Both the position numbers and the translations under genes were made by a program. The notes under the pieces are model-generated. The model searched no databases. It saw nothing but the letters and a program-made list of their open reading frames with translations, and had not been told where the DNA came from. Shown here in pieces: positions 2 to 47,342 of a stretch of DNA of 64,000 nt. Position 1 is the stretch's first letter. Every line of letters begins with the position of its first letter. This stretch comes from a virus. The DNA lies in the IMG/VR virus record IMGVR_UViG_3300028372_000005, positions 1-64,000 of that record; one strand, 5' to 3'.

Positions 2-121
2 GGGCCGATCGATGATGACCGCATCTCGCCTGAAGTCCCGTCGACGACCGAGACGGTCTGGCAGGAGTGGATTGAAGTGAGCAATGACGCCGCTGCAGCG
101 TGGGAGGCGTACGGTGAGTGA
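2..121 (+). CDS. C-terminal end of a gene entering from the left
   Basis: An open frame runs in from the left edge and stops at TGA 119-121, giving at least 39 residues ending WEAYGE. The product is acidic and not recognised. Its last eight bases (GTGAGTGA) contain the GTG start of the next gene, the same overlap used between the next two genes, which supports it as a real gene end. Only the tail is in the window. Confidence 0.5.
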   Translation, partial: GPIDDDRISPEVPSTTETVWQEWIEVSNDAAAAWEAYGE

Positions 122-437
122 CGCAGGCTACGGCTACGGCTACAGCAACGGCACCGGCACCGGCTACGGCTACGGCCACGGCCTCGGCTATGGCTTCGGC
201 TACGGCTCCGGCTCCGGCCTCGGCTATGGCTTCGGCTACGGCTCCGGCTACATCATCGCCAAAATCGGCGGCCACGATGTCTGCGGACACACGCCGTTCG
301 CAGTCGTTTCAGTAGGCTGCGAGACCCACACCATCGACCACTGGAGGAATGACTGGAGAGAGATAGCACGCGAGCACAGCGCCGACGTCTCAAGAGAGGA
401 TGTTGAGAAGATACTCATGGAGGTAAGTTGTGAGTGA
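114..437 (+). CDS. Gly/Tyr-rich protein, paralogue 1
   Basis: About 107 residues. I chose GTG 114 over ATG 84 because it follows GGGAGG at suitable spacing and matches the start of its paralogue (MSD...). Residues about 5-45 are low complexity, almost only G, Y, S, T, F and H in alternating GYGYG steps. A compact C-terminal domain follows, with the conserved signatures HTPFAV, VGCETHTI and HWR..WREIA. The next gene has the same layout. Function unknown. The repeat part could be a flexible or self-associating tail, which is inference. Confidence 0.7.
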   Translation: MSDAGYGYGYSNGTGTGYGYGHGLGYGFGYGSGSGLGYGFGYGSGYIIAKIGGHDVCGHTPFAVVSVGCETHTIDHWRNDWREIAREHSADVSREDVEKILMEVSCE

Positions 438-819
438 CACAGGGAGCAACGGCTACGGCCACGGCTACGGCCACGGCACCGGCACCGGAAACGGCCACGG
501 CTACGGCGACGGCAACGGCAGCAGATACGGCTTCGGCTTCGGCGACGGCGACGGCTACGGCTACGGCTACGGATACGGCCACGGCACCATCATCGCCACG
601 ATCGCAGGATACGAGGTTCGCCGACACACGCCGTTCGCCGTCATCGCAGTAGGATGCGAAACCCACACAATCACCCACTGGAGGGAGCACTGGAGAGAAA
701 TCGCTGATGAGCACAACGTCGATGTTTCAGAAGAAGACATCAAAAAAGTATTCACTAAAATCAAAGGAGACCAATGTATCACAAGAGCAACTTTGGAAAA
801 TTCGCCCCCCGTGGCGTAG
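430..819 (+). CDS. Gly/Tyr-rich protein, paralogue 2
   Basis: A tandem paralogue of the preceding gene, overlapping it by eight bases (GTGAGTGA). GTG 430 follows GGAGG. An N-terminal GYGHGYG-type tract is followed by the same domain (HTPFAV, VGCETHTI, HWREHWREIA). The repeat tracts differ in order and composition while the C-terminal domains stay close, consistent with an old duplication followed by repeat turnover. The last 15 codons overlap the next gene in another frame and extend past where the paralogue stops. Function unknown. Confidence 0.68.
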   Translation: MSDTGSNGYGHGYGHGTGTGNGHGYGDGNGSRYGFGFGDGDGYGYGYGYGHGTIIATIAGYEVRRHTPFAVIAVGCETHTITHWREHWREIADEHNVDVSEEDIKKVFTKIKGDQCITRATLENSPPVA

Positions 820-1669: not shown

Positions 1670-1734
1670 AATAACCCTTGCAAAAGCGGGTGTGGGTCCA
1701 CTACGGTGGGCTCATACCCCTTACTGGAGCTTGT

Positions 1735-3426
1735 ATGAAGCAGTATTTGGAACTGATGCAACGCATCCTCGACGAGGGTGTTCAAAAGAAAGATCGCACC
1801 GGCACCGGCACCCGGAGCATCCACGGTGTGCAGCTCACCCATGACCTGTCGGAGGGTTTTCCGGCCGTGACCACCAAAAAACTTTGGTTCAAAGGGGTTG
1901 TTGAAGAGTTTCTTTGGATGGTAGTTCGGGGATCTACCGACGTAAAAGAGCTCGAAGACAGAGGGGTGGGAATTTGGTCAAACTGGCGAGGTGATGACGG
2001 CGATATAGGGCCGGGGTACGGGAAGCAATTTCGCCATCATACGCCTGCGCAAAAATTCGTTCGGGTCGAACCAAGAGTGGTAAAGACAGCGAAGCGGGTG
2101 ACTAAGCACTTCTCCCTCATTGACCCCGAAGAGCGCGGTGAAGATGCGCTTATTGGAGAAACCTTACCATCTAAATCCCACGGAGAGTTCAGAGTGCTTC
2201 GCTCATACAGAAAAGGCGGTCGAAGCATGGTTGATGTTCAGTTTTTAGATACGGGCTACGTCGCAAAAGAAGTCCGAAGGGAGAGAGTTCAAGAGGGCGG
2301 AATCAAGGACCGCTATGCACCTTCTGTGTGGGGTGTGGGCCACATGGGTGATATGCTGCTGGATAAATCCGTTCCTATTCAGGCTCACTTTTACTCCATC
2401 TGGCAATCCATGCTGGAGCGGTGCTACAACCCAAGCCATCCAGCCTATGAAAATTATGGAGGCGATGGAATTTTTGTGTGCAACAGGTGGCTCAATTTCA
2501 CCAATTTTTTTAATGACCTTAAAAGGCTGCCTAATTGGCATCTCAAGAAAAACGATTGGGATGGCTATCAGTTAGACAAAGACTACTACTCTTCAAACTG
2601 CTACTCACCAAAAACGTGCGTCTGGCTATCGAAAGCACACAACGTGCTATACAGGGGCGACACGCGTAAGTTTGTCGCTACCATGCCATCAGGTCAAAAA
2701 GTCGAGCGCATAAATAGATATGCTTTTGCCAGGAATCACGACTTAAACCCTGCAAATATATGGCATGTGCTTCAAGGGAATAGGCAGACCCACAAAGGGT
2801 ATCGGTTTGAGTATGCGTCCGAAGATACAAATTGGCGCTATGCTTTGCCGTATGACCAAGTTGAGTCGGTTATCGAGGGGCTCAAAAACAACCCTCAGTC
2901 AAGACGTCACATCATCAGCCTTTGGAACGGCCCCGAGATGAACCTGACGACACTGCCTTGTTGTCATGGGAACATTGTTCAGTTTCTGACGCGACCGCGA
3001 CCGATGTCCAGGGTGGCGACGGAGGTTAAGGCCACTGGAGGGAGCTGCGACGGTGAAAAACTCGTCGTGGAGTCAGCCAAAAAGCGCGGTATCCCCACCC
3101 ACGTCCTCGACTGCATCATGCACCAGCGATCCGCAGACTGGTTGCTAGGAGTACCCTGGAATATCGCATTCTATGCCATATTTACCCATGTGGTATCACA
3201 GCTAACCAACATGACTCCCGGCACCCTGACGATGAACTTCGGCGACGCGCACCTGTACAACAATCACCTCGACAAGGCTCGCGAGCAACTCAGCCGGGAG
3301 CCGCACGCGCTGTGCGAGCTTGTTCTAAATTCTGGAATACGGAACATCGACGACTTCACCTTCGACGACATCGAGCTCGTCGGCTACGAACATCACCCCG
3401 CTATCAAAGCAGAGGTTGCTGTATGA
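1735..3426 (+). CDS. thyA: Thymidylate synthase with in-frame endonuclease-like insertion
   Basis: Converts dUMP to dTMP using methylene-tetrahydrofolate. The start at ATG 1735 follows GGAG and gives an E. coli-like N-terminus (MKQYLELMQRILDEG). All catalytic signatures are present: the RTGTGT loop, YGKQFR, the nucleophile region LPCCHG, QRSADWLLGVPWNI and HLYNNH. The protein is 563 residues, about 270 longer than usual. The extra residues lie between YGKQFRHH and YDQVESVIEGLKNNP and carry a homing-endonuclease-like module (separate entry). The reading frame is unbroken throughout. Whether the insert is spliced out, processed or tolerated as a loop cannot be decided here. It overlaps the next gene by ATGA. 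Confidence 0.93.
   Translation: MKQYLELMQRILDEGVQKKDRTGTGTRSIHGVQLTHDLSEGFPAVTTKKLWFKGVVEEFLWMVVRGSTDVKELEDRGVGIWSNWRGDDGDIGPGYGKQFRHHTPAQKFVRVEPRVVKTAKRVTKHFSLIDPEERGEDALIGETLPSKSHGEFRVLRSYRKGGRSMVDVQFLDTGYVAKEVRRERVQEGGIKDRYAPSVWGVGHMGDMLLDKSVPIQAHFYSIWQSMLERCYNPSHPAYENYGGDGIFVCNRWLNFTNFFNDLKRLPNWHLKKNDWDGYQLDKDYYSSNCYSPKTCVWLSKAHNVLYRGDTRKFVATMPSGQKVERINRYAFARNHDLNPANIWHVLQGNRQTHKGYRFEYASEDTNWRYALPYDQVESVIEGLKNNPQSRRHIISLWNGPEMNLTTLPCCHGNIVQFLTRPRPMSRVATEVKATGGSCDGEKLVVESAKKRGIPTHVLDCIMHQRSADWLLGVPWNIAFYAIFTHVVSQLTNMTPGTLTMNFGDAHLYNNHLDKAREQLSREPHALCELVLNSGIRNIDDFTFDDIELVGYEHHPAIKAEVAV
2041..2835 (+). mobile_element. In-frame HNH/NUMOD-type homing endonuclease module inside thyA
   Basis: About 265 codons interrupt ThyA after YGKQFRHH (boundaries plus or minus 20 bases). 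The insert holds a signature seen in phage homing endonucleases (MLERCYNPSHPAYENYGG, VCNRW, then LDKDYY...YSPKTCVW). It ends in a NUMOD/IENR1-like DNA-binding segment (FARNHDLNPANIWHVLQG, HKGYRFEY). Its base composition is visibly more AT-rich than the flanking exons, which suggests recent arrival. It lacks intein hallmarks: no Cys or Ser at the junction and no C-terminal His-Asn. It may therefore be an intron with a read-through ORF, or a domain insertion. Confidence 0.75.
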
Positions 3427-9173: not shown

Positions 9174-9424
9174 TTGAAAACAAGCACAGAAACAGCCTCG
9201 TCGTTTATAAAAAATCGAACGATGAAAAATTCAAAATAGTCATCCGCACTTTCCCAGAAAGTGAAAAAGCAAAAACTTTGTGGGTATGGACTGATTCTGG
9301 ATGGTCGAAGTTTTACGAATCGTTAGACGTAAAAACTCGCAGAGAGCAAGGAGGGGCTCCGAGAGAAAATTTTGAAGAGGACATAAAATCTATCACGGGT
9401 GTCATCGACATTTTTTTCTCGTGA
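9170..9424 (+). CDS. Hypothetical AT-rich-coded protein
   Basis: An 84-residue protein from ATG 9170 behind CAAGGAG. Codon use is clearly more AT-rich than in most genes here (many AAA, GAA, TTT), which suggests separate origin. The product is Lys-rich with WVWTDSGWSKFYES in the middle. It is the last + strand gene before the intergenic block. No family recognised. Confidence 0.6.
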   Translation: MIENKHRNSLVVYKKSNDEKFKIVIRTFPESEKAKTLWVWTDSGWSKFYESLDVKTRREQGGAPRENFEEDIKSITGVIDIFFS

Positions 9425-9471
9425 AATACACTATGTAAGCATACCGGCCGCTCAGTTAACTTCAAATGAAA

Positions 9472-9498
9472 GGAGGCGCTGCGCGGCCTCTTTTTTTT
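9472..9498 (+). terminator. Rho-independent terminator
   Basis: GAGGC and GCCTC arms enclose a GC-rich loop and are followed by eight T residues. It ends the + strand gene run finishing at 9424. Confidence 0.75.
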
Positions 9499-9504
9499 GC
9501 AGGA

Positions 9505-9850
9505 GGGGTCTGAATGGTGAGGGTAGACACTTCAAACTGTCTAGTAGACACTTTGTTTTTGGGCAAGTGTCTACCCCTAAGCCATTGAAAACACTAGGAA
9601 ACCCATCATTAGTAGACAGTTAGACACTTCCCCCAGAGAGTCTTGAGATAGTAAACTGCATAAGAATTACCACAAGTAGAAAAAGTATATTATTTATATT
9701 GTGTAGTAGGTGGTGGTATATAGGTAGAGTGGTAGAGTATGGGCAAAGTGTCGAAGTGTCTACCATTTCCGAAAAACCCAATGATATCAATGGTTTAGGG
9801 GTAGACACTTAGGGTTTTTGGGAATTTTCGAAGTGTCTACACCTGTCTAA
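9505..9850. repeat. Iteron-like repeat block, candidate replication origin
   Basis: A 10-bp motif GTAGACACTT occurs six times exactly, in both orientations: 9523(+), 9544(+), 9565(-), 9754(-), 9801(+) and 9831(-). Degenerate copies lie at 9612, 9620 and 9746. The first three start exactly 21 bases apart, two helical turns. Between the two groups, about 9640-9720, is a very AT-rich tract, a plausible unwinding element. No gene is credible here. The block lies directly beside the primase-helicase gene. An operator array for a repressor is the main alternative. Confidence 0.6.
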
Positions 9851-9858
9851 AATAAAAA

Positions 9859-9885
9859 AAACCGCCCAGAAAATCTGAGCGGTTT
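9859..9885 (-). terminator. Rho-independent terminator of the primase-helicase gene
   Basis: Read on the minus strand, a perfect 7-bp stem (AAACCGC/GCGGTTT) is followed by a long U tract, 20 bases after the stop of the minus-strand gene. Confidence 0.85.
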
Positions 9886-9904: not shown

Positions 9905-12481
9905 TCAGAACACCACATCTCCTGCGTAATCAAGGTTGGTCAGAGAAACTTTTTCTCCCGGTTGGTCAACATTCCACCACAATCCTCGGTCGTCTCTGAA
10001 TTTTCCTTTCTTCCATTTGATTTTCACGAATGGCTGAACGGATATTTTTTTCCAGTGGTTCCAGAACGCCTTTCCAGATCGAAGGTCTTTTCCTTTTGTG
10101 GCCCACAGGTCTCCAACGGTTTGTTTGAGGGTATCGATCGGGATATGCACCTTGTCCGTCTCAGGATCCAAGCCACGAGCACTGATGAGCTCACAGATGG
10201 CGTCGTAGGTTCGGTGGGCGTCCTTAGCCTCCTCGTCCACGTCACCCTTCCTGGAGGCGATGAGGCTCATGAGTTCATCGGCGTTCTCGAACTTGGTCAT
10301 GATGTCTTCGTCCCAGGCGGGAAATCTCGAGTTTTTATCGATCGAAGATTTCGGCTCTTCGAGAAATCTTGCCTTGATGTCTGCGATGATTTGCTCGTGG
10401 TGTCGGACCAAAAAGACGCTGAACCATTTCTTGAAGTCGAAGTCGTGCTTCTTGGGTCCGATCTTGATGACGACAGATCTCGAGGCCAAATCAGTCGACA
10501 GCTCGGGGGTGTTCGCCGACATGAACCAGGTGAAGTAGTTCGGGATGGTCGCGTCGCCCTCATACATTCTCTTGCCTGAGATTTCGTCGCGAGTGATGGC
10601 TGCTTCCAGTCCGCCGCGGTCGAGCATTTTTTTCATGTTGTCGATGAAGAGCACACGTTTTTTCATCGAGCCCGGAGTCAGCAGTCGTTGGGTGACCTGA
10701 TTCCACTCCTCGTCCTCCTGCACCTGAATCGAGCCGTCGTAAATCTTGGCGATGGCTTCGATGGTCGTCGACTTGCCGACGCCTCGGCCGTGGTCGGTCG
10801 TAAGCACGAAAGCTGGGCGCTGGCCGGGCGGGCCTCCCCAGAAGGGGGTGAGCACCGCCGATTCGAGGAGTTGGCGGTCGAGCTCGGTCTCGGGGTTGAG
10901 CTTGGAGATGAACTCTTCGAGATACCGCCCATCTCCTGGCTCGACGTCGGCCGTGTAGATGGTGTTCGGCAGTGGCGGGTGGTGGGGGATGGTCTTGTAG
11001 CTCGTGTAATTGTGCTTGGATTGGTCTTTCAGCGCGCTCAAGAGTTCGCCGAAGTTGGCGGCGCGGGTTTTCTCTCCGTCCAGCCAGACCTGGGAGTCGG
11101 ACCAGACGACGTTGGTGGTCAGCTGGAGCCAGGAGCTCAGGTCAGTAGAGTTTTCGATGAAGTTGATGGCCTTGTCTGGTGCGGCGACATCTCCCCAGTG
11201 CGGGCCCTGCGCGGCCAGGTAGGGTCCGATCATACGCGGCCATTCGTCGACGAGGTTGTGGATGGTGTCAATGATCTCGCGCATCTGCACTTTGTGCTTG
11301 GAGGTCTTCGTTTTTCCCTCCTCGGTCGTTCTGCTGACTGTGTAGTAGTTTCGAACTTTGCTGTCGTCGTACCACTGGCGGGTGACCGCGAGGCTGGTCT
11401 CGGGCTCAAACTCGAAGATGTCTCGCGGGTGGACGCCGGGACGACCAAGGAACTTCTTGACGTTAAACGACGCCTCTTCGAGGAAGTCGGCGATGTCCTT
11501 GCCGTTGTTTTCCGGCAGTAGGTCGATGTTCGGGTTCGACTCGGGCCACAGCACCCGGATGTCGTTGTGCGGCATATTGAGTGCGAGCTGGTGGGCTTTT
11601 TTTGCGCCCGGCTCGTCCATGTCCGGCACGATGATGACCTGCTTGTCGTGCAGGCAGTACAGGTCGGTGACCCCGGCGCCGCCCTGCAGGTAGGTGGTGA
11701 CGATGGCCTCGTACTTCGACTCGTCCTCGCCGGCAAAAAAGGCGTCGCCCTTGCATTTGTTGAGCGCTTTTTGGAGGGCGTGCATGCATTTTTCACCCTC
11801 GACGATGTAGACCGTCTGCTGGCCTGCGGCCGCCAGCTCGCTCAGCTTGTACAGCGGGCGCCTGTGGTTTCTGGTGATCCCCATCCCCGTCTGCCACTCG
11901 GTGCCGTCGAAGTGCATCGGGCGCACGAACTTGCCGTCGGGCAGATCCCACCGGGCCGTGGCGAAGCCGTGGAGCTTGCCGTTGTACTCGCAGGCGACCG
12001 TGTCGATGGAGGTGGCCTGGTCGAAAAATAAGGCCTCCCACCCACCCTTGTCGCGCTTTCGCATCATGCCCTGGACCTGCCGACCGTTGTACTCGATCCA
12101 CTCGACGGGAGGCAGGGTCTTCTCGGTGGTCTGGGGGCGGATGACCTCGACCGGCTCGGGGCGCTTTTGGGGCACATGGGTCGAGTACCCAGTACTCTCG
12201 CCCGATCCATACTTTGCCTTGAGCTCCCCGATTGCGTCCTCGACACTCAAGCCTCGCTCGACCATCCACAGGTCGATGATGGTACCGGTGGCGTCCTCGT
12301 CGGGGATGCCGGCCGGGTTGTGGCACTTGTACCGGATGACACCGTCGGCGTCGGTCCAGATCGACAGGTGGTCGCTGCCTGCGTGCATAGGGCACGGGTT
12401 GTTGCGCGAGTTGTGGGTATGGTAGCCGAGATCCTCGAAGGGAGCCTGGAGCGTCTTGATAGTGTCAAGTTCGTCATGCAT
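9905..12481 (-). CDS. DNA primase-helicase (zinc finger, TOPRIM and helicase domains)
   Basis: About 858 residues. I place the start at 12481 (MHDELDTIK); the frame stays open upstream but reads antisense to another gene. Residues 30-54 (CPMH...KCH) resemble a CHC2-type primase zinc finger. A TOPRIM-like region follows (TVYIVEGEKC, then VIIVPDMDEPG). The C-terminal half is an ATPase with Walker A GRGVGKST near residue 567 and Walker B RVLFIDN, resembling D5/SF3-type phage helicases. It would unwind the origin and prime synthesis. It is the only long minus-strand gene in the left half and sits beside the iteron block. Confidence 0.88.
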   Translation of the reverse strand: MHDELDTIKTLQAPFEDLGYHTHNSRNNPCPMHAGSDHLSIWTDADGVIRYKCHNPAGIPDEDATGTIIDLWMVERGLSVEDAIGELKAKYGSGESTGYSTHVPQKRPEPVEVIRPQTTEKTLPPVEWIEYNGRQVQGMMRKRDKGGWEALFFDQATSIDTVACEYNGKLHGFATARWDLPDGKFVRPMHFDGTEWQTGMGITRNHRRPLYKLSELAAAGQQTVYIVEGEKCMHALQKALNKCKGDAFFAGEDESKYEAIVTTYLQGGAGVTDLYCLHDKQVIIVPDMDEPGAKKAHQLALNMPHNDIRVLWPESNPNIDLLPENNGKDIADFLEEASFNVKKFLGRPGVHPRDIFEFEPETSLAVTRQWYDDSKVRNYYTVSRTTEEGKTKTSKHKVQMREIIDTIHNLVDEWPRMIGPYLAAQGPHWGDVAAPDKAINFIENSTDLSSWLQLTTNVVWSDSQVWLDGEKTRAANFGELLSALKDQSKHNYTSYKTIPHHPPLPNTIYTADVEPGDGRYLEEFISKLNPETELDRQLLESAVLTPFWGGPPGQRPAFVLTTDHGRGVGKSTTIEAIAKIYDGSIQVQEDEEWNQVTQRLLTPGSMKKRVLFIDNMKKMLDRGGLEAAITRDEISGKRMYEGDATIPNYFTWFMSANTPELSTDLASRSVVIKIGPKKHDFDFKKWFSVFLVRHHEQIIADIKARFLEEPKSSIDKNSRFPAWDEDIMTKFENADELMSLIASRKGDVDEEAKDAHRTYDAICELISARGLDPETDKVHIPIDTLKQTVGDLWATKGKDLRSGKAFWNHWKKISVQPFVKIKWKKGKFRDDRGLWWNVDQPGEKVSLTNLDYAGDVVF

Positions 12482-14033: not shown

Positions 14034-14293
14034 GCTACAAATTCGAAACCTACAAGGGTTGGGAGATTGTCTGGGTGGCCGGTGACCGATGCTACGCCGA
14101 AAATATCCACGGCGATGTGATCAATCACGACGTGGTCAGGGCCAAGTTCGATTGGGCCCGCAGAAAGATATGCGAGCGCATCGACGAGGAGGGCCAGATG
14201 GAGCCCGTCGACCTGCACGAAGAGATCCTGACTCTCAGAGATGAAAATAAAAAACTTGAATCCAAATTGGATGTAATGCGAGGATTGTTATGA
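14030..14293 (+). CDS. Hypothetical small protein with coiled-coil tail
   Basis: An 87-residue protein from ATG 14030, overlapping the upstream stop. Residues about 5-30 are beta-rich (FETYKGWEIVWVAGDRCYAE). The C-terminus is a short predicted coiled coil (EILTLRDENKKLESKLDVM). The stop overlaps the next start. Confidence 0.6.
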   Translation: MSYKFETYKGWEIVWVAGDRCYAENIHGDVINHDVVRAKFDWARRKICERIDEEGQMEPVDLHEEILTLRDENKKLESKLDVMRGLL

Positions 14294-26549: not shown

Positions 26550-26968
26550 GGGGCCGTACTGGTTTCGACGTGAGTCCAGAAGCTCCTGCTACACGCCGCG
26601 GAGTCTATCCGCGTTACCAATGGACACAAGTCCTAGTTGACGAAACTAACGACGACAATGTCATCTATGCTGACTTCAGTCAGTATGGTGGCGCCAAAAC
26701 GGTCGCAGCAGCAGCATAAGTCGGCCGCGGCGGTTCAAACCCGCCCGCTCCCGCGATGTTTGCCGGTCGGTTGACCGGGAGTGAACGACAGACCGGATAA
26801 GTCTCGAGCGGAGAGCCTCTAAGCCAACCTCGAGAACGAAACAAAGAGACGAGGCACACCGAGAGCCCCTGCCTGTGGGGAACCTCTCGGTTACACAATC
26901 ACAGGACAGCGTGGACACGCAGGATGTGAAAGACATCGCACACGCGGGTTCGACTCCCGCCGGCTCCA
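26550..26968 (+). ncRNA. ssrA: tmRNA (transfer-messenger RNA)
   Basis: About 419 nt. The 5' end GGGGCCG pairs with CGGCTCC at 26961-26967, followed by discriminator A. The TTCGAC box after the 5' arm and the T-arm CGGGTTCGACTCCCG are canonical. CCA is not encoded. Downstream of TAGTT the tag frame begins at GAC 26639, reads DETNDDNVIYADF and ends KTVAAAA at TAA 26717-26719, a 26-residue tag. tmRNA rescues stalled ribosomes and tags incomplete peptides for proteolysis. A phage copy may keep translation running late in infection. An Asp resume codon and this length are unusual. Confidence 0.9.
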
Positions 26969-27019
26969 CTTTTTGTTTTGACGCACAGGGAAGATGCTAG
27001 ATCAAATAGAACTCAGTGA

Positions 27020-27206: not shown

Positions 27207-27280
27207 ACACCCGTAGCTCAGTTGGTCAGAGCGTCGGCTTGTGGTGCCGAAGGTCGTGGGTTCGATACCCACCAGATACC
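27207..27280 (+). tRNA. tRNA-His (GTG) with defective acceptor stem
   Basis: The D arm (GCTC/GAGC), anticodon arm (TCGGC/GCCGA, loop TTGTGGT, anticodon GTG) and T arm (GTGGG/CCCAC, loop TTCGATA) are intact. The discriminator position is C, as expected for tRNA-His. The acceptor arms ACACCCG and CAGATAC leave only three Watson-Crick pairs and four A-C mismatches. No G-1 or CCA is encoded. It is a tRNA by core structure, but charging by HisRS is doubtful unless it is edited or altered. Confidence 0.65.
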
Positions 27281-30541: not shown

Positions 30542-30657
30542 AGAAGGTGAGCCTTTATTTGTCCAGAGAATTCTACGAGCGCCTTTGTCGTGAGGCCGAC
30601 CAACGCGACATGACCCTGGCAGAATATATCCGAGCCCTTCTCTACGAGCGATTATGA
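30538..30657 (+). CDS. Small ribbon-helix-helix protein
   Basis: 39 residues from ATG 30538 to TGA 30657, between overlapping neighbours. KKVSLYLSREFYERLCREAD, then MTLAEYIRALLYERL, fits the beta-strand, helix, helix pattern of Arc/CopG DNA-binding proteins. It is probably a dimeric regulator coupled to dnaE. Confidence 0.6.
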   Translation: MKKVSLYLSREFYERLCREADQRDMTLAEYIRALLYERL

Positions 30658-33600
30658 TTCACCTGCACGCACACACACGATTTTCGGTGAGCGATGGACT
30701 CGCAAGCCCCGACGAGTTGGCTCAGGCCGCAACAGGCGGCGTGCTGGCAATCACTGATCACAATACCCTCGGGGGCGCAGTCAAGCATCAGATCGCCTGC
30801 GACAGGCATGGAGTCACGCCTGTATTTGGCGTCGACCTCGACGTCCTCGACCAAAATCGACTCACCCTCCTCGCCCAGAACAAAACGGGCTACAAAAACC
30901 TGATCGAGCTCATTCGCCTGGAGCGTCGCGGCTGGGACGATCTGGACCGACACTCCGAAGGCATCATTGCGATGTCCGGCGACCTCAAAGGCGCGATCCC
31001 CCAGTCAGTCTTGAGCGAGGACGTCGAGGCGCTTCGTGCCCACACCTCAAAGCTTCGCGTCATCTACGGTGATCGTTTCTATCTGGAAAAAATAAACCAC
31101 GGACTGCCCGAGCAAGAAAAGGTGTGCGCCTTTTTGGACAAACTCTCTCGCAACACCGGCATCCCGGCCGTCACGACCAACGACGTCCACTACCTGAAGC
31201 CGGAGGATGCTGTCGCGCACGCAGTTATGATCTGCGACAAACTCAACCGGTCGCTGACGCCAGCACGCATTGAGGACATTCGGATTAACGGCGCCTGGAT
31301 GACCGATCTGGAGTGCCCCATCGCTCGCGAGATCGCCCAGCGGTGCCATTTCAGGCTCGAGGTCGACCCCGACAAACCCTACCTGCCAGCCTTCACCAAC
31401 CTCGAGGGGTTTGATACCGAAGAGGAATTTCTGTGGCATCTGGCCAGAAAAGGCCTGAGCGATCGACTGGATGGGGTGCTCGACGCCGAGTACACCGATC
31501 GCCTCACCCATGAGTATCAGATCATTTGCGACATGGGGTTTGCCGGCTACTTCCTGATCGTCTGGGACTTCATCAAGCAGGCCAGAATCCAGGGCATTCC
31601 GGTGGGGCCGGGTCGCGGATCTGGCGGCGGCAGTCTGGTGTCATACTGCTTAAACATCACCGACTTCGACCCGCTCGAGTATGGTCTTTTGTTCGAGCGA
31701 TTTTTGAACCCAGAACGTGTCTCGATGCCCGACTTCGACATCGACTTTTGCATCGAGCGGCGCGATGAAATCTTCTCTCATGTACGCCGCGTCTACGGCA
31801 AAGACAACGTCGCAGGGATTGGCACCTACGGCGAGAACCGACCCCGGAGCGCCTGGGACAACACCGGGCGCATCTTCGGGGTGAAGGCAGCCAGGCGCCA
31901 ACGCATCGCCAATCAGTACCTGCCCGAGTCCGCCGACTCCAAGACGCTCAAAGATATCCTGGACGGAGATGACCTCGAGGCTCTTTTCAAAGATCGGCCG
32001 CAGTACCGGCAGGTGTTCGAGCTCGCCGAACGAATCGAGGGCACGTTTCGAAACAAGGGCAAGCACGCCGGCGGTGTCATCATCGCCGACGATCGCCTGA
32101 CCAACTACGCCCCCATCCGCGCCGACGACGAAGGCGTGTTCGACCACGTCGTCGAATTCCAGATGGAGGATGCCGAGAAGATCGGCCTGGTCAAATTCGA
32201 CTTTCTGGGTCTGGCCGAACTCACAGTTCTCGAGCGCGTCTCCAAGCAGGTCGGCATCGACGTGCACGACATTCCGCTCGATGACGCTAAGACCTTCGAG
32301 CTCATCGGCAGCGGCAATACGCTCGGCACTTTTCAGATGGGCTCGACCGGCTTCCAGGAGCTGATGTCGAAGATGAAGCCCTGGATGTTCAGCCACATCA
32401 TCGCCGCGGTGGCGCTTTATCGCCCGGGCCCCAAAAACGCCGGCATGCTCGACAAGTTTGTCGATCGCATGCACGGCCGCGAGGAGGTGGACTACCTGCA
32501 CGACGCGCTCGAGCCCATCCTAAACGATACCTACGGCGTGATTCTGTACCAGGAGCAGATCATGCACATCGCTCAGCAGCTCGCCGACTACACACTCGGC
32601 GGCGCCGACATTCTTCGCCGCGGCATCGGAAAAAAGAAGCGCAAGGTGATCGAGGCTGAGAAGCCCAAATTCATCGACGGCGTCGAAGAGCACGGCGTTG
32701 ATCGCGAGATCGGCGAGGAGCTGTGGGATCAGATCGAAACCTTTGCCGAGTACGGTTTTAATAAGTGCTTGGTCGGCGACACTCAGCTGGAAAGAGCCGG
32801 GGCCAATCAACACAGCGGGCGCTACTTGACCGTGAAAGAGCTGTATGACGCCCAATCCGAGCGGATGGACAACGGCCGGTATGCGCCGTACGCGCAAAAA
32901 ATACGGGCGGGCAGGATGCGGATTCTACAGTACTGCCCCGATGGGCGCATCCGGCCTGGCAATGTGGTCAAGGTGCACGAAAACGGCACCAGGGAAGTAT
33001 TCGAAGTGCTTTTATCGGATGGAAGGTCGGTCGAGGCTACCGCAAATCACCGCTTCTTAACCGACCAGGGATACGAGGAGGTCCAAAACATAGAAGTGGG
33101 CGATCTACTGATCGTGCGTAGCAACAAAGAGGGGTATCAAAAACAGGGGATTGACACCTCGAGAGCAAAAGGGATGAGCTACCAAACCTCAACACCCGGG
33201 TTTGACGCTGGAGAGAACAACCCCTCTTATATCGATGGTAGAACTCGGGCGCTCAAAGAAGCCCAGGAGAGGGCACTAGCACGCTCAGGCTGGGGGTGTG
33301 AGTTTTGCGCCTGCGAGGACGATGGCAGGTTTGAATTCGCCCACCTGAGGCCTCTTGAGCATTTTGATTTTGACTTTGTGACCTACAACAGTACCGACAA
33401 CATTGCGCACCTGTGCAACTCGTGCCACAAGAAGCTCGACTATGAAAAAGGCGAGCGAAGACCAGCCTGGTCAAAGGGCAAGCCGTCGACCACCTCTGAG
33501 GTGGTTAGCATCCGGTGTGTGGGCGAAAAGATGACGTACGACGTGGAGATGGCCGACCCATACCACAATTTCATGGCGAACGGCATTGTCAGTCACAACT

Positions 33601-34556
33601 CACATTCCACCGGCTACGGGCTTCTTGCCTACTGGACGGCTTACTTCAAGGCGCACTTCCCGGCCGCCTTCTTAGCCGCCCAGATGCACGTGCGCCGAAA
33701 CGATTTTGACAAGCTTTCCGACTTCATCCACAACGCACGCGAGATGGGCATCGAGGTCAAAGACGCCGACGTACGCCACTCGCCGGCGGAGTTCTGGGGC
33801 GACGACAGCAGGATCTGGGCGGGCATCAACACCATCAAGGGGTTCAATGACGAGACGGCTACTGTCATCGCTGATGCCGAGTTCGACAGCCTGATGAGCC
33901 TGCTCGAGACCATCGACCTCAAGCCCAGCGAATTGTCGATGCTCGCTGAAGCCGGCGCGCTCGACGACCTGCTCGGCATCACGTCGATGAGCGAGGCTTG
34001 CCAGAAGCGCGCCGACATCGTCGAGCAGGCCAAGGCGCTCATCAAAAATGCGTCGAAGTATGCGCACACCCACGGGCAGGCGGCGATGTTCTCGCTCAAG
34101 TCGGTCGGGATGAGCGTCAGCTGGGGGGTGTCGCCACCCTGGTCTCCCTTCGAACTTCTCGAGCTTGAGCGCCAACGCCTGGGGCGCTACCGCACCGACC
34201 ACCCCTCGCGAATTGCGCGCATGAAATACTATAAAAAAACCGCGACCATCGAGATGTGGCAGCAAAAAGGCGAGCCGCAGCCCGAGGACCACGAATTCAA
34301 TAAACGAACATTTTGCCTTGTCGTAGTGGTGTTCGATGTGCATAAAATCATCAACTCGAATGATGAGGAGATGGCGTTTTTGCGCGTCGAGGATGAGACC
34401 GGCGAGTACGACGTGACCGTATTTTCGGACCAGTGTGACATCAAGGCCTTCGAGGCCGCCACCGGCCCGCAACTCATTAAAGTTCAGCCCAACTTCTACA
34501 ACGGGAAGTGGGGCTTGGTTTTCAGACGTATGACACCCATGGAGGAATTGCTTTGA
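30654..34556 (+). CDS. dnaE: DNA polymerase III alpha subunit (DnaE type) containing an intein
   Basis: 1300 residues, about 1022 after removal of a 278-residue intein. The N-terminal PHP domain is clear (HLHAHTRFSVSDG, AITDHNT). The catalytic aspartates of the C-family polymerase are D360 and D362 in PDFDIDF, and D516 in VKFDFLGL. YQEQIMHIAQ and the extein GFNK/SHSTGYGLLAYWTAYF match DnaE. A C-terminal OB-like region (VVVFDVHKII...FLRVEDETGEYDVTVF) follows. It is the phage replicase. Proofreading probably comes from the DnaQ proteins just downstream. Confidence 0.95.
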   Translation: MIHLHAHTRFSVSDGLASPDELAQAATGGVLAITDHNTLGGAVKHQIACDRHGVTPVFGVDLDVLDQNRLTLLAQNKTGYKNLIELIRLERRGWDDLDRHSEGIIAMSGDLKGAIPQSVLSEDVEALRAHTSKLRVIYGDRFYLEKINHGLPEQEKVCAFLDKLSRNTGIPAVTTNDVHYLKPEDAVAHAVMICDKLNRSLTPARIEDIRINGAWMTDLECPIAREIAQRCHFRLEVDPDKPYLPAFTNLEGFDTEEEFLWHLARKGLSDRLDGVLDAEYTDRLTHEYQIICDMGFAGYFLIVWDFIKQARIQGIPVGPGRGSGGGSLVSYCLNITDFDPLEYGLLFERFLNPERVSMPDFDIDFCIERRDEIFSHVRRVYGKDNVAGIGTYGENRPRSAWDNTGRIFGVKAARRQRIANQYLPESADSKTLKDILDGDDLEALFKDRPQYRQVFELAERIEGTFRNKGKHAGGVIIADDRLTNYAPIRADDEGVFDHVVEFQMEDAEKIGLVKFDFLGLAELTVLERVSKQVGIDVHDIPLDDAKTFELIGSGNTLGTFQMGSTGFQELMSKMKPWMFSHIIAAVALYRPGPKNAGMLDKFVDRMHGREEVDYLHDALEPILNDTYGVILYQEQIMHIAQQLADYTLGGADILRRGIGKKKRKVIEAEKPKFIDGVEEHGVDREIGEELWDQIETFAEYGFNKCLVGDTQLERAGANQHSGRYLTVKELYDAQSERMDNGRYAPYAQKIRAGRMRILQYCPDGRIRPGNVVKVHENGTREVFEVLLSDGRSVEATANHRFLTDQGYEEVQNIEVGDLLIVRSNKEGYQKQGIDTSRAKGMSYQTSTPGFDAGENNPSYIDGRTRALKEAQERALARSGWGCEFCACEDDGRFEFAHLRPLEHFDFDFVTYNSTDNIAHLCNSCHKKLDYEKGERRPAWSKGKPSTTSEVVSIRCVGEKMTYDVEMADPYHNFMANGIVSHNSHSTGYGLLAYWTAYFKAHFPAAFLAAQMHVRRNDFDKLSDFIHNAREMGIEVKDADVRHSPAEFWGDDSRIWAGINTIKGFNDETATVIADAEFDSLMSLLETIDLKPSELSMLAEAGALDDLLGITSMSEACQKRADIVEQAKALIKNASKYAHTHGQAAMFSLKSVGMSVSWGVSPPWSPFELLELERQRLGRYRTDHPSRIARMKYYKKTATIEMWQQKGEPQPEDHEFNKRTFCLVVVVFDVHKIINSNDEEMAFLRVEDETGEYDVTVFSDQCDIKAFEAATGPQLIKVQPNFYNGKWGLVFRRMTPMEELL
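32766..33599 (+). mobile_element. Intein with HNH endonuclease in DnaE
   Basis: In-frame 278-residue insert at the conserved GFNK/S site. It starts with Cys (CLVGDTQLE), has a block B-like EATANHRFLT, and ends MANGIVSHN directly before Ser. These are the hallmarks of a self-splicing intein with nucleophiles Cys1 and Ser+1. The middle carries an HNH homing endonuclease (CEFCACED...FAHLRPL...CNSCHKKLD). DnaE and related polymerases are known intein hot spots. Confidence 0.93.
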
Positions 34557-47043: not shown

Positions 47044-47342
47044 TGCAGGGACTACTGAAGACAGCTGGGCAGGGTGAAGAATCGTTCTGGGATCGCCACG
47101 GCGACAAGGTGCTCTACGGGGGCGCCATCCTCGGTGCCGGCGCAGGACTTGGTGCGCTCGCGCACAACAGTATGAAGAATGAGGCGGTCCACAATGCCAA
47201 GAGGAAGCGCAACATCTCCGACCTCGAGGCGGACACGAAGGCGCTCGAGCAAAACACATCCAAGCGCACGGACCCTCGGCGTCTTTCGACTCCAGAAGGG
47301 TTTGATCAATTCATGGCAAGCGACGAGACATTCATCCTATGA
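47043..47342 (+). CDS. Tagged glycine-zipper/coiled-coil protein
   Basis: 99 residues from ATG 47043. The leader MQGLLKTA is followed by one glycine-zipper segment (YGGAILGAGAGLGALAHNS) and a helical charged region (ISDLEADTKALEQNTSK). Overlaps the next gene by four bases. Confidence 0.64.
   Translation: MQGLLKTAGQGEESFWDRHGDKVLYGGAILGAGAGLGALAHNSMKNEAVHNAKRKRNISDLEADTKALEQNTSKRTDPRRLSTPEGFDQFMASDETFIL

What the first reader, a model, noticed from the sequence alone, without database searches (positions are those of the whole stretch)
9505..9850. Iteron array flanking an AT-rich tract beside the primase-helicase
Six exact copies of GTAGACACTT in both orientations plus three degenerate copies. 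The first three are spaced exactly 21 bp, and the array surrounds an AT-rich core at about 9640-9720. Both sides are closed by terminators. The adjacent gene encodes a primase-helicase. This is the architecture of an iteron replication origin.
Basis: partly seen in the sequence, partly recalled or inferred. Interest (0 to 1): 0.74.

Follow-up and report, generated by a model that had tools for sequence, protein, structure and literature searches.

The report
Phage replication origin beside its primase-helicase
A short stretch of repeated DNA words around the most AT-rich spot of this phage looks like the place where its own primase-helicase opens the DNA to start copying, and the same repeated word lies at the tested replication origin of a small E. 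coli phage parasite.

Summary
Six exact GTAGACACTT copies lie at 9523-9840, none elsewhere in the 64,358-base phage record. They flank the lowest-GC 80 bases of the window (9643-9722, 27.5% against 57.9%). The array sits between convergent gene ends; the right-hand terminator is strong, the left weaker. It lies about 65 bp beyond the 3' end of a divergent TOPRIM/DUF5906 primase-helicase.

This is the anatomy of P4- and PICI-type origins. The origin region of E. coli PICI EcCICFT073, whose deletion reduced plasmid colonies in print, carries the same GTAGACA word in the same place. Phage P4's type 1 repeat is TGTTCACC against TGTCTACC here, also just 3' of its primase-helicase with a terminator between. 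SCCmec Cch2 needs AAGTG, contained in AAGTGTCTAC.

Viral contigs gave 86 GTAGACA arrays against 5 for a reversed control; 26 of 48 with six or more copies lie within 500 bp of a D5/VapE helicase gene, 21 at its 3' end.

Best reading: initiator-binding origin of this phage. Binding and replication are untested; structure models failed; skew gives no support; the record may be a fragment. A new member of a known kind.

The parts
9523..9532 (+). iteron 1, exact GTAGACACTT
9535..9544 (-). degenerate iteron (2 mismatches)
9544..9553 (+). iteron 2, exact
9565..9574 (-). iteron 3, exact, inverted
9612..9621 (+). iteron 4, 1 mismatch (GTAGACAGTT; the GTAGACAG form is also seen in EcCICFT073)
9620..9629 (+). 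iteron 5, 1 mismatch (TTAGACACTT)
9643..9722 (.). AT-rich core, 27.5% GC, lowest 80-bp stretch of the window; proposed DNA unwinding element
9724..9737 (+). two GTAGAG half-iterons; GTAGAGAGT variants also occur in L008 and L100
9746..9755 (-). degenerate iteron (2 mismatches)
9754..9763 (-). iteron 6, exact, inverted
9801..9810 (+). iteron 7, exact
9831..9840 (-). iteron 8, exact, inverted
9446..9498 (+). terminator-like hairpin and T run that closes the left transcription unit
   Evidence: z -2.2; not listed
9849..9885 (-). intrinsic terminator of the primase-helicase gene, between gene and array (compare P4 talpha)
9905..12481 (-). primase-helicase (TOPRIM primase part, DUF5906 AAA+ helicase), proposed initiator; start at the ATG 12481 inferred, open frame runs to 13270

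Best explanation
The 9523-9840 array is the initiator-binding origin of replication of this phage, of the P4/PICI type. The adjacent self-loading primase-helicase binds GTAGACACTT iterons in two sets on either side of the AT-rich core, assembles there as oligomers, melts the core and starts unwinding and priming; the phage's own Pol III-type polymerase then extends. Shown here: the repeats, the core, the place 3' of the helicase gene, the insulated convergent-gene context, and the same iteron word at the same place in a published PICI replicon and beside many D5/VapE helicase genes. Inferred: that this helicase binds these repeats, and that replication starts here.
For: Exact array absent elsewhere in the record. 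Lowest-GC stretch of the window as core. Same GTAGACA word 3' of pri-rep in EcCICFT073; in print rep is needed and ori deletion reduced colonies, and two iteron sets always flank an AT-rich region. P4 type 1 repeat TGTTCACC, crr 3' of alpha with a terminator between. SCCmec Cch2, a D5-type helicase, binds repeats downstream of its gene by its C-terminal domain and needs AAGTG for helicase activity. 86 viral stretches against 5 for the reversed pattern; of 48 with 6 or more copies, 26 have a D5/VapE gene within 500 bp, 21 at its 3' end, 0-59 bp away. Genes chosen by protein and not by motif: a 7-mer repeated 4 or more times in the 3' 500 bp of 14 of 25, in the 5' 500 bp of 2 of 25, against 12.3% of random segments of 16 of those loci.
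Against: The window's helicase is very divergent: DUF5906 just under its cut-off, D5_N and Pox_D5 not detected, profile match only over the AAA+ core (prob 56%), not found by the D5/VapE models built here. No reliable structure (pLDDT 36.5 and 40.3), so no origin-binding domain was seen. GC skew has no turning point at 9.7 kb. The record is linear without end repeats and may be a fragment, so another origin could lie outside it. No relative of the phage was found, so conservation of this array could not be tested. Of the 25 protein-chosen genes only 3 have GTAGACA arrays, all E. coli. 38 of 86 stretches have 3-5 copies and only 1 of these 38 has a helicase within 500 bp.
Confidence: 0.8

Rival explanations
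1. The array is a cis-acting initiator-binding region like P4's crr, needed for replication or its control, but the start point lies elsewhere in the genome.
For: In P4 the cluster 3' of alpha is crr; the annotated origin with further type 1 repeats lies about 4.5 kb away. The record may be incomplete.
Against: No second cluster in the record. The array holds its own AT-rich core, the lowest-GC stretch of the window. In PICIs the single 3' cluster is the origin.
Confidence: 0.1
2. The repeats are operators for a transcription regulator.
For: Short inverted and direct repeats are typical of operators (established knowledge, no call).
Against: Both flanking genes end at the array with terminator-like hairpins facing it. 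The only promoter-like site found lies before the array, at chance level (1 found, 1.4 expected). The same word sits at origins and beside replicative helicases.
Confidence: 0.05
3. A packaging or partition site, not an origin.
For: A lineage of low-GC contigs has three-copy GTAGACA arrays without a D5/VapE helicase nearby, in L015 near a small-terminase-like gene.
Against: The window array is 47 kb from the terminase-like gene at 56676 and next to the primase-helicase. Those three-copy arrays span 53 bp, unlike the window's.
Confidence: 0.04

Closest known systems
Gram-negative PICI origin (EcCICFT073 pri-rep-ori, PMC6092414; passages and section 11 read)
   Same: GTAGACA iterons in both orientations, two sets around an AT-rich stretch, directly 3' of the primase/helicase gene.
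   Different: PICIs are small integrated satellites; this is a 64-kb phage record with its own Pol III alpha, RNA polymerase and terminase ATPase. The helicases are very distant, and the window iteron is GTAGACACTT against GTAGACAG there.
Phage P4 crr and ori (record X51522)
   Same: 8-bp repeats TGTTCACC against TGTCTACC, crr 3' of the alpha primase-helicase with a terminator between.
   Different: Two central bases differ; P4 has crr and a separate origin, the window one cluster.
SCCmec Cch2 downstream repeats (PMC7581432; passages read)
   Same: D5-type helicase binds repeats downstream of its gene with its C-terminal domain; AAGTG word shared.
   Different: Three 5-nt iterons, and the priming protein (CCPol-MP) is separate from the helicase.
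Repeats 3' of VapE/D5 genes in named phages (Pd_22F, FutureBee, CHPC1282, Javan392, Scapp)
   Same: Short repeats 3' of the helicase gene.
   Different: Other words: GTCAACA, TGCAACA, CGGTAAC, GGTAACA, AAAAGTG.

Membership tests
P4/PICI-type (D5-family) iteron origin | several short iterons in both orientations, clustered | tested here: met
P4/PICI-type (D5-family) iteron origin | two iteron sets flanking an AT-rich region | tested here: met
   4 copies left, 3 right of the AT-rich minimum. 51 of 57 examined arrays with 5 or more copies score so, a lenient criterion
P4/PICI-type (D5-family) iteron origin | directly 3' of the primase-helicase gene | tested here: met
   gene ends at 9905, last iteron at 9840
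P4/PICI-type (D5-family) iteron origin | iteron word of a tested member | tested here: met
   GTAGACA in EcCICFT073; the P4 word differs at two bases
P4/PICI-type (D5-family) iteron origin | neighbour is a D5/SF3-type helicase | tested here: inconclusive
   DUF5906 27.5 of 27.6 bits, hhalign to D5 set E 1e-4 over the AAA+ core; D5_N not found; D5/VapE models miss it
P4/PICI-type (D5-family) iteron origin | C-terminal origin-binding winged helix in the helicase | tested here: inconclusive
   models pLDDT 36.5 and 40.3; Pox_D5 domain not detected
P4/PICI-type (D5-family) iteron origin | supports autonomous replication with its initiator | not testable with these tools
   needs an experiment
PICI (the element) | small integrated satellite without its own replication polymerase and terminase set | tested here: not met
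   64-kb record with Pol III alpha, RNA polymerase, ribonucleotide reductase and terminase ATPase genes

The most novel reading that the evidence does not exclude
GTAGACAC is one iteron 'word' used by D5- and VapE-type replicative helicases across distant phages and satellites (from enterobacterial satellites to elements in Firmicutes, Bacteroidia and alphaproteobacterial assemblies, and this phage), so that satellites and phages can share or steal each other's initiators, and this word with its P4-like sister GTGAACA predicts origins in many unmapped phage genomes.
Probability: 0.35. Interest if true: 0.75.

Novelty: new member of a known kind. Interest (0 to 1): 0.5.

Why it matters
[quoted passage not shown] More generally, iterons just 3' of D5/VapE primase-helicase genes look like a rule by which origins of many phages can be predicted from sequence, and shared iteron words raise the question of initiator theft between satellites and phages.

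Tried and rejected
Relatives of the window's primase-helicase: none in viral contigs or genome contigs; in annotated phages three weak matches over one stretch, annotated as TOPRIM or DnaB-like proteins. DNA similarity of the region: none in phages or plasmids. Relatives of the polymerase and of the 778-aa protein at 14290: none. Structure prediction of the whole primase-helicase alone and of its last 439 residues with 17 distant rows: pLDDT 36.5 and 40.3, not used for any fold search. GC skew: no turning point at the array.

Of the eight loci of the first pattern scan, L009, L010, L013 and L014 show only inverted pairs of the word near the match and were set aside as possible hairpins; L012 has a three-copy cluster and no helicase. 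A first count of helicase association mixed in those loci and left out six loci; redid it on all 86. One search drops arrays under 5 copies (so L102, with 4, is not in it) and its two-set criterion is lenient. One of the five reversed-pattern control loci, L152, itself lies about 0.9 kb 3' of a D5 gene, so the control is not wholly free of origins. The weight matrix was built only from GTAGACA sites of 25 chosen loci, so its window ranking is descriptive, not independent proof. A scan for direct pairs of the exact 10-mer gave 21 stretches; one search took 20 of them (L054 left out, covered) and found a D5/VapE gene in 2 of 20 (L208, L213) and no relative of the window helicase. No paper naming GTAGACAC or GTGTCTAC as an iteron was seen: (1,416 papers hold one of the words, 40 listed, none of the 40 titles on this subject). 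Figures and most subscription journals are not held, so the iteron letters in Fig. 2 of PMC6092414 were not seen; they were read from the CFT073 sequence.

Full report
Observation. The window is bases 1-64000 of a 64,358-base virus record. Six exact GTAGACACTT copies lie at 9523-9840 in both orientations and nowhere else in the record. Two one-mismatch copies and two more with two mismatches lie among them. 9643-9722 is the lowest-GC 80-base stretch of the whole window, 27.5% against 57.9%. The left reading frame ends at 9424 and the right gene, on the minus strand, ends at 9905. Between each gene and the array stands a terminator-like hairpin, strong on the right, weaker on the left. The array therefore lies between two convergent, terminated units. 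The only promoter-like site of the kilobase lies before the array and is at chance level.

The neighbour. The minus-strand gene encodes a primase-helicase: phrog_239 DNA primase/helicase E 7.5e-14, DUF5906 27.5 bits against a cut-off of 27.6. A comparison with an alignment of 19 D5-family helicases matches the AAA+ core only, E 1e-4, probability 56%. The Walker and sensor motifs are visible in the translation (my reading). The likely start is the ATG at 12481; the open frame reaches 13270. Pfam or PHROG scans of 20 window proteins showed one other helicase, SNF2-like, at 47339, and no DnaB-type helicase; most small proteins were not scanned. The record also encodes a Pol III alpha.

The same word at published origins. 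PMC6092414 (passages, section 11) reports that in Gram-negative PICIs the origin lies immediately 3' of the initiator gene, always with two iteron sets flanking an AT-rich region, that EcCICFT073 rep-ori plasmids give colonies, that a rep deletion does not, and that an ori deletion reduces them. The iteron letters are in a figure that is not held. I read the region from the CFT073 chromosome: 3' of the primase gene (L099:22242-23996) lie CTGTCTACC and GGTAGACAG repeats around an AT-rich stretch. Relatives in other E. coli strains have GTAGACA (L100, L102) or GTGAACA (L101, and phage record L103) at the same place. The P4 record annotates type 1 repeats whose letters are mostly TGTTCACC, in crr directly 3' of alpha with a terminator between, and again at its origin. 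In SCCmec, the D5-type helicase Cch2 binds repeats just downstream of its gene through its C-terminal domain and needs the iteron AAGTG for helicase activity (PMC7581432, passages); the window word read on the other strand is AAGTGTCTAC.

How widespread. The pattern GTAGACACN{0,4}GTAGACAN{8,38}TGTCTAC gives 86 stretches in viral contigs, its letter-reversed control 5, the P4-like GTGAACA version 23, and in the genome collection 43. The 86 fall into 18 DNA lineages. 48 of the 86 have six or more copies, and 26 of these 48 have a D5/VapE helicase within 500 bp by models built from these loci: 21 at the 3' end (0-59 bp), 5 at the 5' end. Of the other 38, one does; 33 of the 86 form one lineage, with arrays of three copies over 53 bp, without a helicase nearby. 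By lineage 10 of 18 have one. Among the 43 genome stretches 6 do, all at the 3' end, in Oceanobacillus, Cytobacillus, Kluyvera, Bacteroidia and Phreatobacter assemblies; among the 23 GTGAACA stretches 16 have one within 5 kb.

Selection by protein, not by motif. I took 25 D5/VapE genes (16 D5-type: 4 on E. coli chromosomes, counting EcCICFT073, and 12 in phage records; 9 VapE-type in phage records) and looked at both flanks: a 7-mer repeated four or more times stands in the 3' 500 bp of 14 of 25 (9 of 16 and 5 of 9) and in the 5' 500 bp of 2 of 25. Random 500-bp segments of the 16 D5 loci do so in 12.3% of 3,200 draws, arrays included. The words differ by clade: GTAGACA in 3 of 25, GTGAACA in 2 of 25, otherwise GTCAACA, TGCAACA, GGTAACA, CGGTAAC, AAAAGTG and others. 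So iterons 3' of this helicase type are common, while the particular word of the window is one of several. Why the window shares it with E. coli satellites, by descent, exchange or convergence, is open.

Against. The window's helicase is too divergent for the models made here, both structure predictions failed, and no relative of the phage was found, so conservation of this very array could not be tested. GC skew does not turn at 9.7 kb. The record is linear with no end repeat found, and its fused RNA polymerase is closest to phage records of about 180 kb; it may be a fragment, and an origin could exist outside it.

Mechanism. Shown: anatomy, uniqueness, context, shared word with a published origin. 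Inferred from D5-family biology: the helicase binds the iterons on both sides of the core, loads itself, melts the AT-rich stretch, primes with its TOPRIM part, and hands over to the phage polymerase. The main alternative within the same idea is a crr-like cis region with the start point elsewhere. An operator or a packaging site is unlikely by position.

Verdict. It is a new member of the P4/PICI kind of origin in an unusual carrier.

Noticed in passing
window 50086-56679 +: A single 2197-aa reading frame holds both beta- and beta'-type RNA polymerase domains, with the NADFDGD motif; the best matches in annotated phages are records of about 180 kb (Vibrio phages D69, D181, D148; Salmonella phage Arash) at about 28-32% identity.
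   Followed up: partly
window 26550-26971 +: A complete tmRNA gene on a phage (Rfam RF00023, 100 bits; ARAGORN tag DETNDDNVIYADFSQYGGAKTVAAAA), with a tRNA match at 27213-27273.
   Followed up: no
window 30654-34556 + and 1678-3426 +: DNA polymerase III alpha interrupted by an intein with HNH domain, and a thymidylate synthase interrupted by an HNH-bearing stretch.
   Followed up: no
window 84-819: Two neighbouring reading frames with glycine/tyrosine repeats (GYGYGHG...) and similar tails; the only other 10-mer repeated six times within 350 bp in the window lies here.
   Followed up: no
L015, L018, L019 and 30 further loci: A lineage of 33 viral contigs with three-copy GTAGACA arrays over 53 bp, in L015 near a small-terminase-like gene, and no D5/VapE helicase in reach.
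   Followed up: partly
L105, L108, L113, L116, L117, L120, L125, L141 and other Chloroflexi loci: Short GTAGACA clusters, several per genome, in Anaerolineales/Chloroflexi assemblies without a D5/VapE helicase in the fetched loci; their nature is unknown.
   Followed up: no
L101 and L103 against L007, L100: Relatives of one primase family carry either GTGAACA or GTAGACA iterons 3' of the gene: a natural pair for finding the residues that read the two central bases.
   Followed up: partly
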